NCBI GenBank assembly: GCA_030038395.1
Contig: JASHOZ010000062.1
Span: 1 to 58,667, forward strand
Reading direction: 5' to 3'
Length of the DNA stretch: 58,667 nt
Origin: Nitrososphaerales archaeon
Lineage (GTDB): Archaea; Thermoproteota; Nitrososphaeria; Nitrososphaerales; Gagatemarchaeaceae
Part shown: piece after piece, positions 26,995-31,916 of the stretch
Numbering within the stretch: the first letter of the stretch is position 1
Layout of the letters: the number at the start of each line of letters is the position of its first letter
Program-made: the position numbers and the translations under genes
Notes under the pieces: model-generated
Told to the model about the DNA's origin: nothing
Seen by the model: only the letters and a program-made list of their open reading frames with translations
The model's database searches: none

Positions 26995-28296
26995 TTGCCG
27001 TCCCGAAGATCGAACCTTGCCGCCGCCGCGACCCTGGCCATCGCCCTTCTGCTGGTGCTGAGTTCGGCCTCCCTCCCCTTCGCCCGAGCCGAGCAGAATG
27101 TGACTGCCACGATCATCGTTGGAAAGGCTCCGTACGGGATCGCGTACGACCCCGCGAAGGGTGAGATATTCGCGGTCAGCTATGACGCTGACTCCGTCTC
27201 CGTTATATCTGACAGTAACAACTCGGTCGTCGCCACTGTGAACGTCGGCAGCTCCCCGGCCGACATAGCTTACGACTCCGCGAAGGGGGAGATGTTCGTC
27301 TCGAACAGCGCCAGCGACTCTGTCTCGGTCATCTCCGACGGCTCGGACACCGTCGTGGCGACGGTCGACGTGGGCACCAACCCCCGTGGCGTGGCATACG
27401 ACCCAGCCCTGGGCGAGATCTTCGTCGCCACTTCGACCTCGTCCACCTCGGGGAGCGTCTATGTGATATCCGACGCCAACAACACGGTTCTCAACACGAT
27501 TAGCGTCCCGGGTGACGCGTCGGGGATGGCCTACGACTCGGCCAAAGGCGAGCTCTTCGTTTCGACGGGAGACTCTTCGGTCTCCGTGATCTCGACTTCC
27601 ACGGAGGAGATCGTTGCGAGCGTCACCGTCCCAGGACTGCCACGAGGCATCACCTACGACCCAGACAACGGGGACCTGTACGTGTCAAACTACTATACTG
27701 ATGCTGATTCCGTCTCGGTCATCTCCGACAGCTCGGACTCGGTCGTGGCCACCGTCCCAGTGGGGCCATGGCCCTTCTACTCAACCTACGACCCGGCGCT
27801 CCAAGAGATTTTCGTGGGCGACTCCGACTCGCACTCGGTGTCCGTGATAGCCACCACCAACAACACGGTCGTAGGGAACATCACGGTAGGAGAGTACCCG
27901 ACCGCCACCGCTTACGACTCCGCGACGGGCGAGGTGTTCGTTGCCAACTACGGTATCAACACGGTCTCCGTGATCTCGGGGGCGGGTGTCTTGACCAGCT
28001 CCACCAGCTCGTCCAGCTCTTCCAGCTCCTCGACTACGCAGACCTCGACATCTTCTATGTCTAGCCTCTCCACGTCCAGCACGACATCCGAAAGCGCCTC
28101 GTCCAGCTCAGCGAGCTCTACGACATCCAGCTCAGTTCCAACCACGACGAGCAGTTCGTCGAAGAGCTCTGGCGGGGTCCCTGAGTTCCCGTCCTCGGCT
28201 ACCGCGTCTGCCGTCCTTGTGGTCGGCGTTGTCGTTCTCTACCTGGCTGTGAGGAGGCAGGCCTCGCCCGCCGGCTCGCCACGTCATCCAAGGTAG
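26995..28296 (+). CDS. Surface seven-repeat YVTN beta-propeller with PEF-CTERM-like anchor
   Basis: From TTG 26995 the 433-residue product begins with a signal peptide (LAAAATLAIALLLVLSSASL, cut near ARAEQ). It then has seven repeats of about 42 residues with the pattern VGxxPxxxAYDxxxGExFV and SVSVISD, enough for one seven-bladed propeller. A long Ser/Thr-rich linker follows. The end is GGVPEFP, a hydrophobic helix (ASAVLVVGVVVLYLAV) and a basic tail (RRQ). This resembles archaeal PEF-CTERM sorting signals processed by archaeosortase. The frame is open back to 26218, but that part crosses tsr3 and RNase P RNA and is rejected. It is probably a cell-surface binding protein. Confidence 0.85.
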   Translation: MPSRRSNLAAAATLAIALLLVLSSASLPFARAEQNVTATIIVGKAPYGIAYDPAKGEIFAVSYDADSVSVISDSNNSVVATVNVGSSPADIAYDSAKGEMFVSNSASDSVSVISDGSDTVVATVDVGTNPRGVAYDPALGEIFVATSTSSTSGSVYVISDANNTVLNTISVPGDASGMAYDSAKGELFVSTGDSSVSVISTSTEEIVASVTVPGLPRGITYDPDNGDLYVSNYYTDADSVSVISDSSDSVVATVPVGPWPFYSTYDPALQEIFVGDSDSHSVSVIATTNNTVVGNITVGEYPTATAYDSATGEVFVANYGINTVSVISGAGVLTSSTSSSSSSSSSTTQTSTSSMSSLSTSSTTSESASSSSASSTTSSSVPTTTSSSSKSSGGVPEFPSSATASAVLVVGVVVLYLAVRRQASPAGSPRHPR

Positions 28297-28978
28297 CATC
28301 TGTCGTGCTGACGCGCCCAATACCTATGACCGCGACATAGCCCCTGCCTCTTCCCAGTATTCGTCTGATTGTCTCCTTAGAGTATCGTGGATGCTCTGCC
28401 ACCAGATCTGAAATCGGCTTCCCTAGTGTAAGGCCTTCTTCTCTAATGCGTTCGTATTCTCCGGGCGCGACCTTCGCCCTAAGCCTACCGAAGGCATAGG
28501 TGAACTTGAGGCTTCGTCTTTGCTTCATCAACTCGCTCCCCACTGTCCACGTATATGGCACGTCGATCACAGCTCTTCTCGGTCTCTTCTCTCTGCGCCC
28601 CGCTTTGACCTCTTCATGAAAGATGGCAACTAGCTGGTCTCCAGTCATCCTGTCTGCGTAGTAGCCTAGAGTCGCCTTCGCCTCATTACCCTTCTTGCAG
28701 AGATGAGGCAACATTCGGCTGAGGGTCTTGACGACGCTCACGTGCACGCTGACGACGACTGTGTTCGCTGTACCCTTGGACGTCTTTAGGATGTTGCTTT
28801 TCTTGATGCCACGGCAGTTCAAGAATCGCTTGATGTTGGCAATCTGTTCGACCGACTGGTCGGTGAACACGAGTGAGACGCCGAGCTTGTACGGCATATT
28901 GTATAGATCGGAGAATCCGATTGTCCCATCGCCGTCGAAGTGCCCTGCGACTTGGCCCCACGACGAATAGCGTCTCAC
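28199..28978 (-). CDS. Free-standing LAGLIDADG-type homing endonuclease-like protein
   Basis: The sequence SWGQVAGHFDGDGTIGFSD matches a LAGLIDADG motif (here VAGHFDGDG) and is followed by the alternating strand/helix pattern of the family (KLGVSLVFTDQSVEQIANIK and VVVSVHVSVVKTLSRMLPHL). Only one motif is clear. The C-terminal part holds an HTH-like stretch (PISDLVAEHPRYSKETIRRI) as in intron-encoded enzymes. GTG 28978 is chosen because GCTTAAAGC near 29002 gives a leaderless start; the frame is open to 29071. Its 3' end overlaps the convergent propeller gene by 98 nt. No host intron or intein is seen here, so it is a solo element. Confidence 0.7.
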   Translation of the reverse strand: MRRYSSWGQVAGHFDGDGTIGFSDLYNMPYKLGVSLVFTDQSVEQIANIKRFLNCRGIKKSNILKTSKGTANTVVVSVHVSVVKTLSRMLPHLCKKGNEAKATLGYYADRMTGDQLVAIFHEEVKAGRREKRPRRAVIDVPYTWTVGSELMKQRRSLKFTYAFGRLRAKVAPGEYERIREEGLTLGKPISDLVAEHPRYSKETIRRILGRGRGYVAVIGIGRVSTTDATLDDVASRRARPASSQPGRERQRRPQGRQTR

Positions 28979-29013
28979 GGGTTGTTGAGCGTGGAGTCGC
29001 TTTAAGCAGCAAC

Positions 29014-29022
29014 GGTTAATAC
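29014..29022 (+). promoter_or_regulatory. TATA-like box upstream of the Lrp-like gene
   Basis: GGTTAATAC on the plus strand would start transcription near 29045, 20 nt before ATG 29065. A separate element CTTTAAGC at 29000-29007 suits the minus-strand endonuclease gene (GTG 28978). Confidence 0.4.
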
Positions 29023-29064
29023 GGGAGATATGAACGGATTGGGAACAGGGGGCGATTAGTGGCC

Positions 29065-29302
29065 ATGCCACAAGCGTTTCGTATTAATTAATGCTGACCT
29101 CGGTGCGGAAGAGGACCTCCTCAAGAAGCTCCGCGAGGTCCAGCACGTGAAAGACGTCTATGTCGTATATGGCGTCTACGACATCGTCGCGAAGGTCGAG
29201 GCCGACACGATGGAGAAGGTCAAGGAGACGATAACCTGGAACATCCGTCGGCTTGACAAGGTGCGCAGCACGCTGACGATGATCGTCGTCGAACCCAGCT
29301 GA
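29065..29302 (+). pseudogene. Lrp/AsnC ligand-binding-domain protein with +1 frameshift
   Basis: From GTA 29081 the frame encodes VLINADLGAEEDLLKKLREV, continuing VQHVKDVYVVYGVYDIVAKV and ending TLTMIVVEPS. This is the complete stand-alone RAM (Lrp/AsnC effector) domain of about 77 residues common in thaumarchaea. The expected first residues MPQAF are encoded by ATG 29065, but one extra base (C at 29080) puts them in another frame that stops at once. So the gene is frameshifted at codon 6. It could be a real mutation, a base error in the assembly, or a recoding site. Without the shift it would be a normal effector-sensing protein. Confidence 0.75.
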
Positions 29303-29352: not shown

Positions 29353-30564
29353 ATGCGCTGCCTCGTCGGGATTGACGACACCGACTCCTCCAAGGGAGGG
29401 TGCACGACGCATCTCGCGTACCGGATTGCGAGGGACCTCAATTCGGTCCTGACCGTCCTCCCCTACCCCAGGCTCGTGAGGCTGAACCCTAACGTCCCCT
29501 TCAAGACGAGGGGAAACGCGGCCGTCTCGCTCCTGATCGAGACGGCGTCGCCCGACCGCGCATTCGAGGCGATATGCGCCGAGGTGACGCGACTCGCCGA
29601 CACCGGAGGCGGGGCGAACTCCGGGGTGGTGTTCTGCCTAGGCGAGAGCGCGCCTGAGCACTTCTCAGCTCTCTACGCGAGGGCGTTGCGCGGAATCGTC
29701 AACCCTCGGAGCGTCAGGGGGCTTCTGCGCGAATCGGACGTCCTGGCCTTCTCACTGGGCAACGGGATGGGCATCGTCGGAGCCGCTTCAGCCCTCGCCT
29801 TCGACGAGAGGTTCGACCACACCTACGAACTCATCGCCTACAGGAGGCAGGAGAACCTCGCGACGCCGCGGGGAGTCGACTCGTCCACCGTGAAGGCGAT
29901 GGAGCTTTCGACGTGGCCCCACACCTTCAACAGCTACGACCATCAGAAGAGAAAGGCCCTGGTGTCCCCGCACGGCCCCGATCCCGTCTTCCTCGGCATC
30001 AGGGGGGACTCCCCGGAGTCCGTCATGCGAGCCTTCGGGATGGTCGCGTTCACCGAGGCTCTTGACGGGCACATGCTGTACGTCACGAATCAGCACACCG
30101 ACGCGCACCTCGACTCGGAGCTGCGCGAGTGGAAGGCGTTCTCGTCGGGATGGATCCAGGGAAGGGTAGTCGCCCCGAGGACAGGAGCAGGCGGACACGT
30201 GTACTTCTCTCTCGTCATCGGCGGGCGCAGCCGTGCCTGCGCCGCGTACGAGCCGACAGGCGACCTCCGCAGAGCCGCGGCGATGCTGAGCGACGGCGAT
30301 CTTGTTCGGGCCTACGGCGGGGTGAGGCGCCCTTCGAGCAGGCATCCGAGCGTCCTCAACGTGGAGAAGCTGGCGGTCGTCTCTCTCGCCAGGGGCGGGG
30401 GTGCGAGGAGGCTGCGCAGGGGGACGTACATCGCCTCCCCCCGAGCGAACAGGCACCTGACGAGACCGCTGGCCCGGTACGGCTCCGACGCCGCCGGGCT
30501 CCCGTCCCGAGAGGTGGAGGGATGGCTGCGCGGTTACGCTATAGAGACTCGAGCGCCTGTTTGA
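29353..30564 (+). CDS. tiaS: tRNA-Ile2 agmatidine synthetase
   Basis: TiaS attaches agmatine to C34 of tRNA-Ile(CAU), so that it reads AUA and not AUG. The N-terminal MRCLVGIDDTDSSKGGCTTH is the family's TCKD start with the Asp pair. FKTRGNAAVSLLIET, LADTGGGANSGVVF and LSTWPHTFNSYDHQKRK follow in the usual order, and an OB-fold-like segment (VVAPRTGAGGHVYFSLVIGG) comes near residue 270. The length of 403 residues is typical. The gene overlaps the convergent transsulfuration gene by 26 nt. It depends on arginine-derived agmatine. Confidence 0.95.
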   Translation: MRCLVGIDDTDSSKGGCTTHLAYRIARDLNSVLTVLPYPRLVRLNPNVPFKTRGNAAVSLLIETASPDRAFEAICAEVTRLADTGGGANSGVVFCLGESAPEHFSALYARALRGIVNPRSVRGLLRESDVLAFSLGNGMGIVGAASALAFDERFDHTYELIAYRRQENLATPRGVDSSTVKAMELSTWPHTFNSYDHQKRKALVSPHGPDPVFLGIRGDSPESVMRAFGMVAFTEALDGHMLYVTNQHTDAHLDSELREWKAFSSGWIQGRVVAPRTGAGGHVYFSLVIGGRSRACAAYEPTGDLRRAAAMLSDGDLVRAYGGVRRPSSRHPSVLNVEKLAVVSLARGGGARRLRRGTYIASPRANRHLTRPLARYGSDAAGLPSREVEGWLRGYAIETRAPV

Positions 30565-31769: not shown

Positions 31770-31885
31770 TAGCGAGGGGAGGATTTGAACGTGCGTTTGG
31801 GTACGACCCAATCTCCGCTCTGCGGGTTATGAGCCCGCCGGGATGTACCTGGCCCCTCTTACGGGACTGGCTTCCCCACCTCGCT
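31770..31885 (-). tRNA. Initiator tRNA-Met (CAU) with two introns
   Basis: The ends pair as AGCGAGG/CCTCGCT with the A1-U72 pair typical of initiator tRNA. The anticodon arm is GCGGG CTCATAA CCCGC, whose three G-C pairs next to the loop are another initiator mark. Two extra segments must be removed to fold it. An 18-nt piece in the D-loop (about 31851-31868) restores GGGA/TCCC with A14, G15, G18, G19 and A21. A 22-nt piece at 31791-31812 restores the T-arm GGAGG TTCAAAT CCTCC. The mature tRNA is then 76 nt including A73; CCA is not encoded. CATAATAAG at 31908-31916 is a well-placed TATA box. Confidence 0.9.
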
Positions 31886-31907: not shown

Positions 31908-31916
31908 CTTATTATG
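31908..31916 (-). promoter_or_regulatory. TATA box of the initiator tRNA gene
   Basis: CATAATAAG on the minus strand is centred 27 nt before the first base of the mature tRNA, so the primary transcript would start at or within a base or two of the tRNA 5' end. Confidence 0.55.

What the first reader, a model, noticed from the sequence alone, without database searches (positions are those of the whole stretch)
31770..31885. Initiator tRNA-Met with two introns at non-canonical positions
The gene folds into a proper initiator tRNA (A1-U72, three G-C pairs beside the anticodon loop, CAU anticodon) only if two segments are removed: 18 nt in the D-loop, flanked by a repeated GCCAG, and 22 nt between positions 52 and 53 of the T-stem. 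The second segment forms a hairpin TTGGGT-CGT-ACCCAA. Two introns, neither at the usual 37/38 site, in the one tRNA needed to start all translation is unusual. Multiple non-canonical tRNA introns are known mainly from Thermoproteales and a few other archaea.
Basis: partly seen in the sequence, partly recalled or inferred. Interest (0 to 1): 0.82.

Follow-up and report, generated by a model that had tools for sequence, protein, structure and literature searches.

The report
Initiator tRNA gene with two introns
In this archaeon the only gene found for the tRNA that starts every protein is broken by two short introns that must be cut out, a pattern common in its lineage, where some relatives break the same gene four times.

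Summary
The gene is on the minus strand, 31885 to 31770. Taking out 18 nt of the D-loop and 22 nt between positions 52 and 53 leaves a complete initiator tRNA-Met. A solver given no reference finds the same two introns (score 56.2; best of 200 shuffles 33.8; best of 200 other window stretches 35.7). Both junctions form slightly relaxed bulge-helix-bulge motifs, and the intron stems co-vary across relatives. The genome belongs to the Nitrososphaerota family that holds Gagatemarchaeum, not to Thermoproteales. No intact second copy was found in this 90.7% draft or in a single-contig relative. In 36 of 46 family genomes the gene was found; all 35 full-length copies carry introns: one in 2, two in 16, three in 14, four in 3. 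One more four-intron gene lies outside the family. The window's pair (18/19 + 52/53) is the commonest intron pattern among 113 parsed named loci (23; 27 have none). For the window this is a new member of a known kind; the four-intron genes exceed the 'up to three' per archaeal tRNA gene in the papers read. Excision in vivo is inferred.

The parts
31867..31885 (-). Exon 1 of initiator tRNA-Met (positions 1-18; A1 at 31885)
31849..31866 (-). Intron 1, 18 nt, D-loop, placed at 18/19 by the splice motif; 6 equivalent frames because of the GCCAG repeat
   Evidence: central helix 3 of 4 pairs, inner helix 2 pairs
31813..31848 (-). Exon 2 (positions 19-52), anticodon CAU at 31831-31829
31791..31812 (-). 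Intron 2, 22 nt, T-stem 52/53; 6-bp inner hairpin TTGGGT/ACCCAA; central helix G47-C, C48-G, G49-C with one G50-A mismatch
   Evidence: co-variation across relatives
31770..31790 (-). Exon 3 (positions 53-73; discriminator A at 31770)
31908..31916 (-). TATA-like element CATAATAAG, 23-31 nt before the tRNA 5' end
   Evidence: by eye: A/T-rich elements at about this distance precede most of the 35 family genes; no promoter test was run

Best explanation
This is the working, probably sole initiator tRNA-Met gene of an archaeon of the Gagatemarchaeum family (thaumarchaeal group I.1c). It is transcribed as a precursor in which the D-loop and T-stem insertions fold into bulge-helix-bulge motifs. The two-subunit archaeal splicing endonuclease cuts each motif, RtcB joins the exons, and a normal initiator tRNA results. 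Shown: the sequence, the motif geometry, exons conserved while introns vary, co-variation, no backup copy in the sequence held, genes for RtcB and for one endonuclease subunit. Inferred: transcription, cutting and joining.
For: Reference-free recovery of both introns far above shuffles. Seven of the 35 full-length family genes have the same mature sequence to the base, the window's among them, while introns differ in sequence and, at 52/53, in presence. Inner helices of 45 distinct 52/53 introns are paired in 94% of cells against a permuted mean of 65% (maximum 74% in 1000), with 2-4 Watson-Crick types per pair; the exon-intron pair at position 47 also switches among G-T, G-C, T-A, T-G and C-G. 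No intact copy found. In G004, one contig rated 100% complete, the only initiator gene has three introns. Eight further one-mismatch pattern places in 7 relatives are not tRNAs. RtcB present. Twelve of 14 relatives searched have both a subunit with the catalytic Tyr, His and Lys and a second one without the His (which residues are catalytic is recalled). The genome is intron-rich: 22 of the 31 tRNA genes I could resolve, out of 37 candidates, carry introns, 31 in all.
Against: No RNA data. The motifs are relaxed: one mismatch in each central helix, and only 2 inner pairs at the D-loop intron. The catalytic alpha subunit was not found in this 90.7% complete draft. A backup copy could lie in the missing part. 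In one search the central helices of the 18/19, 37/38 and 59/60 introns hardly exceed permutation, since the exon side hardly varies; frames of ambiguous introns had been chosen for the best motif, which favours pairing.
Confidence: 0.93

Rival explanations
1. It is a pseudogene; an intact initiator tRNA gene elsewhere does the work.
For: The draft is 90.7% complete in 69 contigs, so a copy could be missing.
Against: Exons are identical to the base with 6 other family genes while introns vary. All 35 full-length family genes found have introns. G004, a single contig, has one copy, also interrupted.
Confidence: 0.03
2. The segments stay in the RNA: an initiator tRNA with an enlarged D-loop and T-arm, no splicing.
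For: The D-loop segment could in principle be looped out without breaking the D-stem.
Against: The 52/53 segment splits the T-stem; both segments have splice motifs whose stems co-vary; genes with the same mature sequence differ in whether they hold the 52/53 segment (L006, L012 and L014 lack it).
Confidence: 0.02
3. The introns are real and spliced, and in addition they have a role: tying initiator supply to endonuclease and ligase activity, or shielding the gene from integrases that target tRNA 3' ends.
For: Introns persist in this essential gene in all 35 full-length family copies; 39 of 68 mapped thaumarchaeal mobile elements sit in tRNA genes (PMC6563490, passages).
Against: No test made. 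The same paper reports 10 of those 39 in intron-containing tRNA genes. A neutral history explains persistence too.
Confidence: 0.1

Closest known systems
Non-canonical bulge-helix-bulge tRNA introns of Thaumarchaeota
   Same: Same phylum, same motif, short introns; tRNAscan-SE 2.0 has a thaumarchaeal intron model and counts 107 non-canonical introns in Thaumarchaeota genomes (PMC8450103, passages). Named loci labelled Nitrosocosmicus and Nitrososphaeraceae carry the same 18/19 + 52/53 pair in the initiator gene.
   Different: Another family; the paper on it (PMC10640624) holds no word beginning with 'intron' in its main text. Relatives reach four introns in the initiator gene.
Multi-intron tRNA genes of Thermoproteales (Pyrobaculum)
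   Same: Several introns per gene, many non-canonical: 71 introns in 46 genes in P. calidifontis (PMC8450103, passages); a tRNA-Pro of P. islandicum with three (PMC4090602, passages).
   Different: Maximum of three per gene in the papers read; a different lineage.
Thermofilum pendens permuted tRNA-iMet and Nanoarchaeum split tRNA-iMet
   Same: A disrupted initiator tRNA gene processed through the same motif: permuted at 59/60 with a 37/38 intron, or split at 37/38 (PMC3218864, table passage).
   Different: There the exons are reordered or on separate genes; here they are in order with ordinary introns.

Membership tests
Archaeal bulge-helix-bulge tRNA intron | Removal restores a complete tRNA cloverleaf | tested here: met
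   score 56.2; the nine intronless tRNAs of this genome score 50.1-55.2
Archaeal bulge-helix-bulge tRNA intron | Two 3-nt bulges around a 4-bp central helix at the junctions | tested here: met
   present at both sites but relaxed (3 of 4 central pairs each; inner helix 6 bp at 52/53, 2 bp in the D-loop)
Archaeal bulge-helix-bulge tRNA intron | Motif kept by selection | tested here: met
   inner helices paired above all 1000 permutations at 18/19, 37/38, 52/53 and 59/60; the sequences are related and ambiguous frames were motif-chosen, so this is no probability
Archaeal bulge-helix-bulge tRNA intron | Host has an alpha-beta splicing endonuclease | tested here: inconclusive
   Beta found in this draft, alpha not; both in 12 of 14 relatives searched
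Archaeal bulge-helix-bulge tRNA intron | RtcB ligase present | tested here: met
Archaeal bulge-helix-bulge tRNA intron | Excised in vivo | not testable with these tools
   No RNA data
Initiator tRNA-Met | A1-U72, three G-C pairs at 29-31/39-41, CAU anticodon | tested here: met
   (the list of features is recalled; A1:U72 is named for eukaryotes in PMC8450103)
Initiator tRNA-Met | Used to start translation | not testable with these tools
   Inferred from being the only such gene found

The most novel reading that the evidence does not exclude
Across the window's order the initiator tRNA gene is a serial splicing substrate: introns at 4/5, 18/19, 37/38, 52/53 and 59/60 in changing combinations, up to four at once (G011, G027, G036, G038), more than the 'up to three' per archaeal tRNA gene in the papers read. 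Where 52/53 and 59/60 occur together, the T-stem that the 59/60 motif uses is completed only after 52/53 is gone, so splicing has a forced order. Where 4/5 is present (G037, G038), the motif uses bases of the 5' leader, so splicing must come before 5' trimming. Initiator supply then depends on a fixed chain of cuts and joins.
Probability: 0.55. Interest if true: 0.68.

Novelty: new member of a known kind. Interest (0 to 1): 0.5.

Why it matters
Initiator tRNA is needed for every protein, yet in this family every full-length copy found would have to be spliced to work. That makes the gene a clean case for asking why archaea keep tRNA introns, how intron sites are gained and lost one at a time on a nearly fixed exon background, and in what order an endonuclease with relaxed motifs removes three or four introns. 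It also shows a practical gap: ARAGORN and Rfam at its cut-off both miss the gene here, so drafts of this lineage may be scored as lacking an initiator tRNA.

Tried and rejected
Pseudogene with backup copy: searched and not found. Eight extra one-mismatch places in 7 relatives were fetched and read: none is a tRNA (generic scores 25.8-33.9). Retained insertions: rejected on the split T-stem and co-variation. Self-splicing group I intron: not tested directly; the segments are 18 and 22 nt, and the archaeal group I introns in PMC6125680 (passages) are all in rRNA genes.

Misses and weak points. Ten of 46 family genomes gave no hit with the 16-base pattern, one mismatch allowed. A second pattern hit 4 of these 10, in sequence that gives no tRNA; a gapped pattern hit none of the 10. 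One of them, G016, is 97% complete, so its initiator gene is unexplained. The pattern itself would miss genes with an intron in the acceptor or D stem. My greedy solver failed on the window gene; a beam search solved it. L049 and L058 were solved only by the greedy version and worse by the beam version. L064, L068 and L072 were not solved cleanly without a reference. Six of 37 tRNA candidates in this genome stay unresolved (L053, L059, L264, L265, L266, L269). Reference-guided frames at some sites (50/51, 58/59, 47/48, 56/57, 20/20a) differ from the reference-free reading of the same genes; intron numbers agree except L071, which rises from three to four, and L077, from one to two. One search left out loci under score 110, introns under 14 nt (12 at 18/19 and 5 at 37/38, counted) and odd-frame introns. 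Of 24 same-order genomes outside the family, 22 were read (21, G053); G052 and G054 had only weak hits and were not read.

Full report
What is there. On the minus strand, 31885 to 31770, lies a 116-nt tRNA gene. ARAGORN reports no tRNA in the window, nor at this locus with introns allowed. Rfam's tRNA family scores 19.2 bits against a cut-off of 29, with an offset 5' end. With 31866-31849 (18 nt) and 31812-31791 (22 nt) left out, the remaining 76 nt are a complete initiator tRNA-Met: A1-U72, D-stem, GGG/CCC in the anticodon stem, CAU, T-stem GGAGG/CCTCC, acceptor stem, A73.

Is it more than chance? I wrote a solver that knows only generic tRNA structure and the bulge-helix-bulge rule (central 4-bp helix between the 5' exon and the intron end, cut after the second bulge base; the geometry is recalled and agrees with a passage of PMC4090602). 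It recovers exactly these two introns, with a tRNA score of 56.2. Two hundred dinucleotide shuffles reach at most 33.8, and 200 other stretches of the window at most 35.7. A first, greedy version of the solver failed on this gene.

The splice motifs. At 52/53 the motif has three of four central pairs (G47-C, C48-G, G49-C; G50 faces A) and a 6-bp inner hairpin. At the D-loop site the GCCAG repeat allows six equivalent frames; the best motif puts it at 18/19, with three of four central pairs and two inner pairs. Both are slightly relaxed. Across relatives the inner helices co-vary. For 45 distinct 52/53 introns 94% of cells are paired, against a mean of 65% and a maximum of 74% when partners are permuted 1000 times; for 44 distinct 18/19 introns 73% against 53% (maximum 63%). 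The central helices at 18/19, 37/38 and 59/60 hardly exceed permutation, because the exon side hardly varies; at 52/53 they do (97% against 89%, maximum 92%). Of the introns counted, 36 of 109 at 18/19 and 15 of 71 at 52/53 had more than one possible frame and were set to the best motif, which favours pairing.

Which organism. Contig lengths tie genomes of the window's family to Ca. Gagatemarchaeum stordalenia (G067:C13 and PLUF01000040.1, 40516 bases) and palsa_1368 (G061:C12 and PLCG01000068.1, 188099 bases). PMC10640624 (passages) places bog-1369 and palsa-1368 in group I.1c, GTDB family UBA183, named Gagatemarchaeaceae.

Relatives. Of 46 genomes in the family, 36 have the 5' part of the gene; 35 genes are full-length and one (G018) is cut by a contig end. 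All 35 have introns: 2 have one, 16 two, 14 three and 3 four (numbers from the reference-guided parser). The three four-intron genes (G011, G027, G036) were each recovered by the reference-free solver with four motifs. The record that matches G036 carries a coverage of 2.16 in its title, so base errors are possible there. Outside the family, 22 of the 24 same-order genomes sampled were read; 20 have introns in this gene, and G050 and G060 have none. One of these, G038, resolves to four introns at 4/5, 37/38, 52/53 and 59/60, and G037 to 4/5 and 37/38. Among 113 parsed named loci (7 of 120 left out), 86 have introns and 27 none; the window's pair, 18/19 + 52/53, is the commonest intron pattern (23), including loci labelled Nitrosocosmicus and Nitrososphaeraceae. 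So the pair in the window is a common state in this lineage.

Only copy? Searches of the window's draft find one such gene. The draft is 90.7% complete, so this alone is weak. Relative G004, a single contig rated 100% complete, has one gene, with three introns. Eight extra one-mismatch places in 7 relatives are not tRNAs. Seven of the 35 full-length family genes have the same mature sequence to the base, the window's among them, while their introns differ. This speaks against a pseudogene.

Machinery. RtcB is present as one open frame interrupted by about 480 extra codons. The splicing endonuclease domain is found once in this draft, and it is the subunit without the catalytic His. All 14 relatives searched have that subunit and 12 also have the other; the two without it, G010 and G011, are 53% and 79% complete. 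I take alpha to be in an assembly gap here, but that is not shown.

The rest of the genome. Rfam gives 37 tRNA candidates. I resolved 31 (score 50 or more): nine without introns and 22 with 31 introns; one pair, L055 and L056, is probably one gene assembled twice. That is about one intron per resolved gene. PMC8450103 (passages) gives averages of 0.84 for Thermoproteales and 0.21 for archaea. My sample is partial and my solver is not theirs, so this is only indicative.

How it most likely works. The gene is transcribed, perhaps from the TATA-like element 23-31 nt upstream. The two motifs form, the two-subunit endonuclease cuts each, and RtcB seals the exons. In one search, six genes with introns on both sides of position 53 (L008, L009, L010, L017, L026, L075) have an outer helix of the 59/60 motif broken at its second or third pair, and 14 genes with 59/60 but without 52/53 have it whole; L080, with another T-side intron of uncertain frame, has it whole too. 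So 52/53 should go first. In G037 and G038 the 4/5 motif pairs with two bases of the 5' leader, so it should be removed before 5' trimming. These order claims are inference; the endonuclease may tolerate half-motifs.

What is new. Non-canonical introns in thaumarchaeal tRNA genes and several introns per gene are known (passages). Disrupted initiator genes are known from Thermofilum and Nanoarchaeum. [quoted passage not shown] My searches for four saw listings only: 8 of 8 papers and 20 of 49, none with a title on this; GtRNAdb was not available. The sites 18/19 and 52/53 are not among the example sites in the passage of PMC4090602, but its figure was not held and its list ends in 'etc.'. For the window itself I file the find as a new member of a known kind.

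Noticed in passing
G000:C36:19219-22029 (L202, L203): RtcB, the tRNA ligase, is split at profile position 50 by about 480 extra codons inside one 1027-aa open frame, as an intein would do. The ligase that seals these tRNAs may itself need protein splicing.
   Followed up: no
window 28199-29071 (-): A 290-aa frame beside TiaS holds a stretch that reads by eye like a LAGLIDADG homing endonuclease, but Pfam gives no match at E 0.001.
   Followed up: partly
window 29353-30564 (+): TiaS (two Pfam domains), which modifies the other CAU-anticodon tRNA (Ile2; recalled), lies about 1.2 kb from the initiator gene.
   Followed up: partly
G038:C46 (L071) and G037:C1 (L077): Initiator gene introns at 4/5 in the acceptor stem, whose central helix uses bases of the 5' leader. 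G053 (L287, same genus handle as G037) shows a similar stretch before the gene.
   Followed up: partly
G016 (relative rated 97% complete): No initiator tRNA gene found with three different patterns; perhaps interrupted inside every pattern used.
   Followed up: partly
own genome: L039, L050, L052, L054, L055, L058: D-arm introns recur in several tRNAs of this genome (read as Lys, His, Ile, Gly, Gln, Asn), so the D-arm looks like a favoured intron site.
   Followed up: no
L100 (JAJFKT010000034.1): A record labelled Woeseiaceae bacterium holds an intronless initiator tRNA identical in mature sequence to that of Nitrosopumilus loci such as L082; likely a binning error.
   Followed up: no
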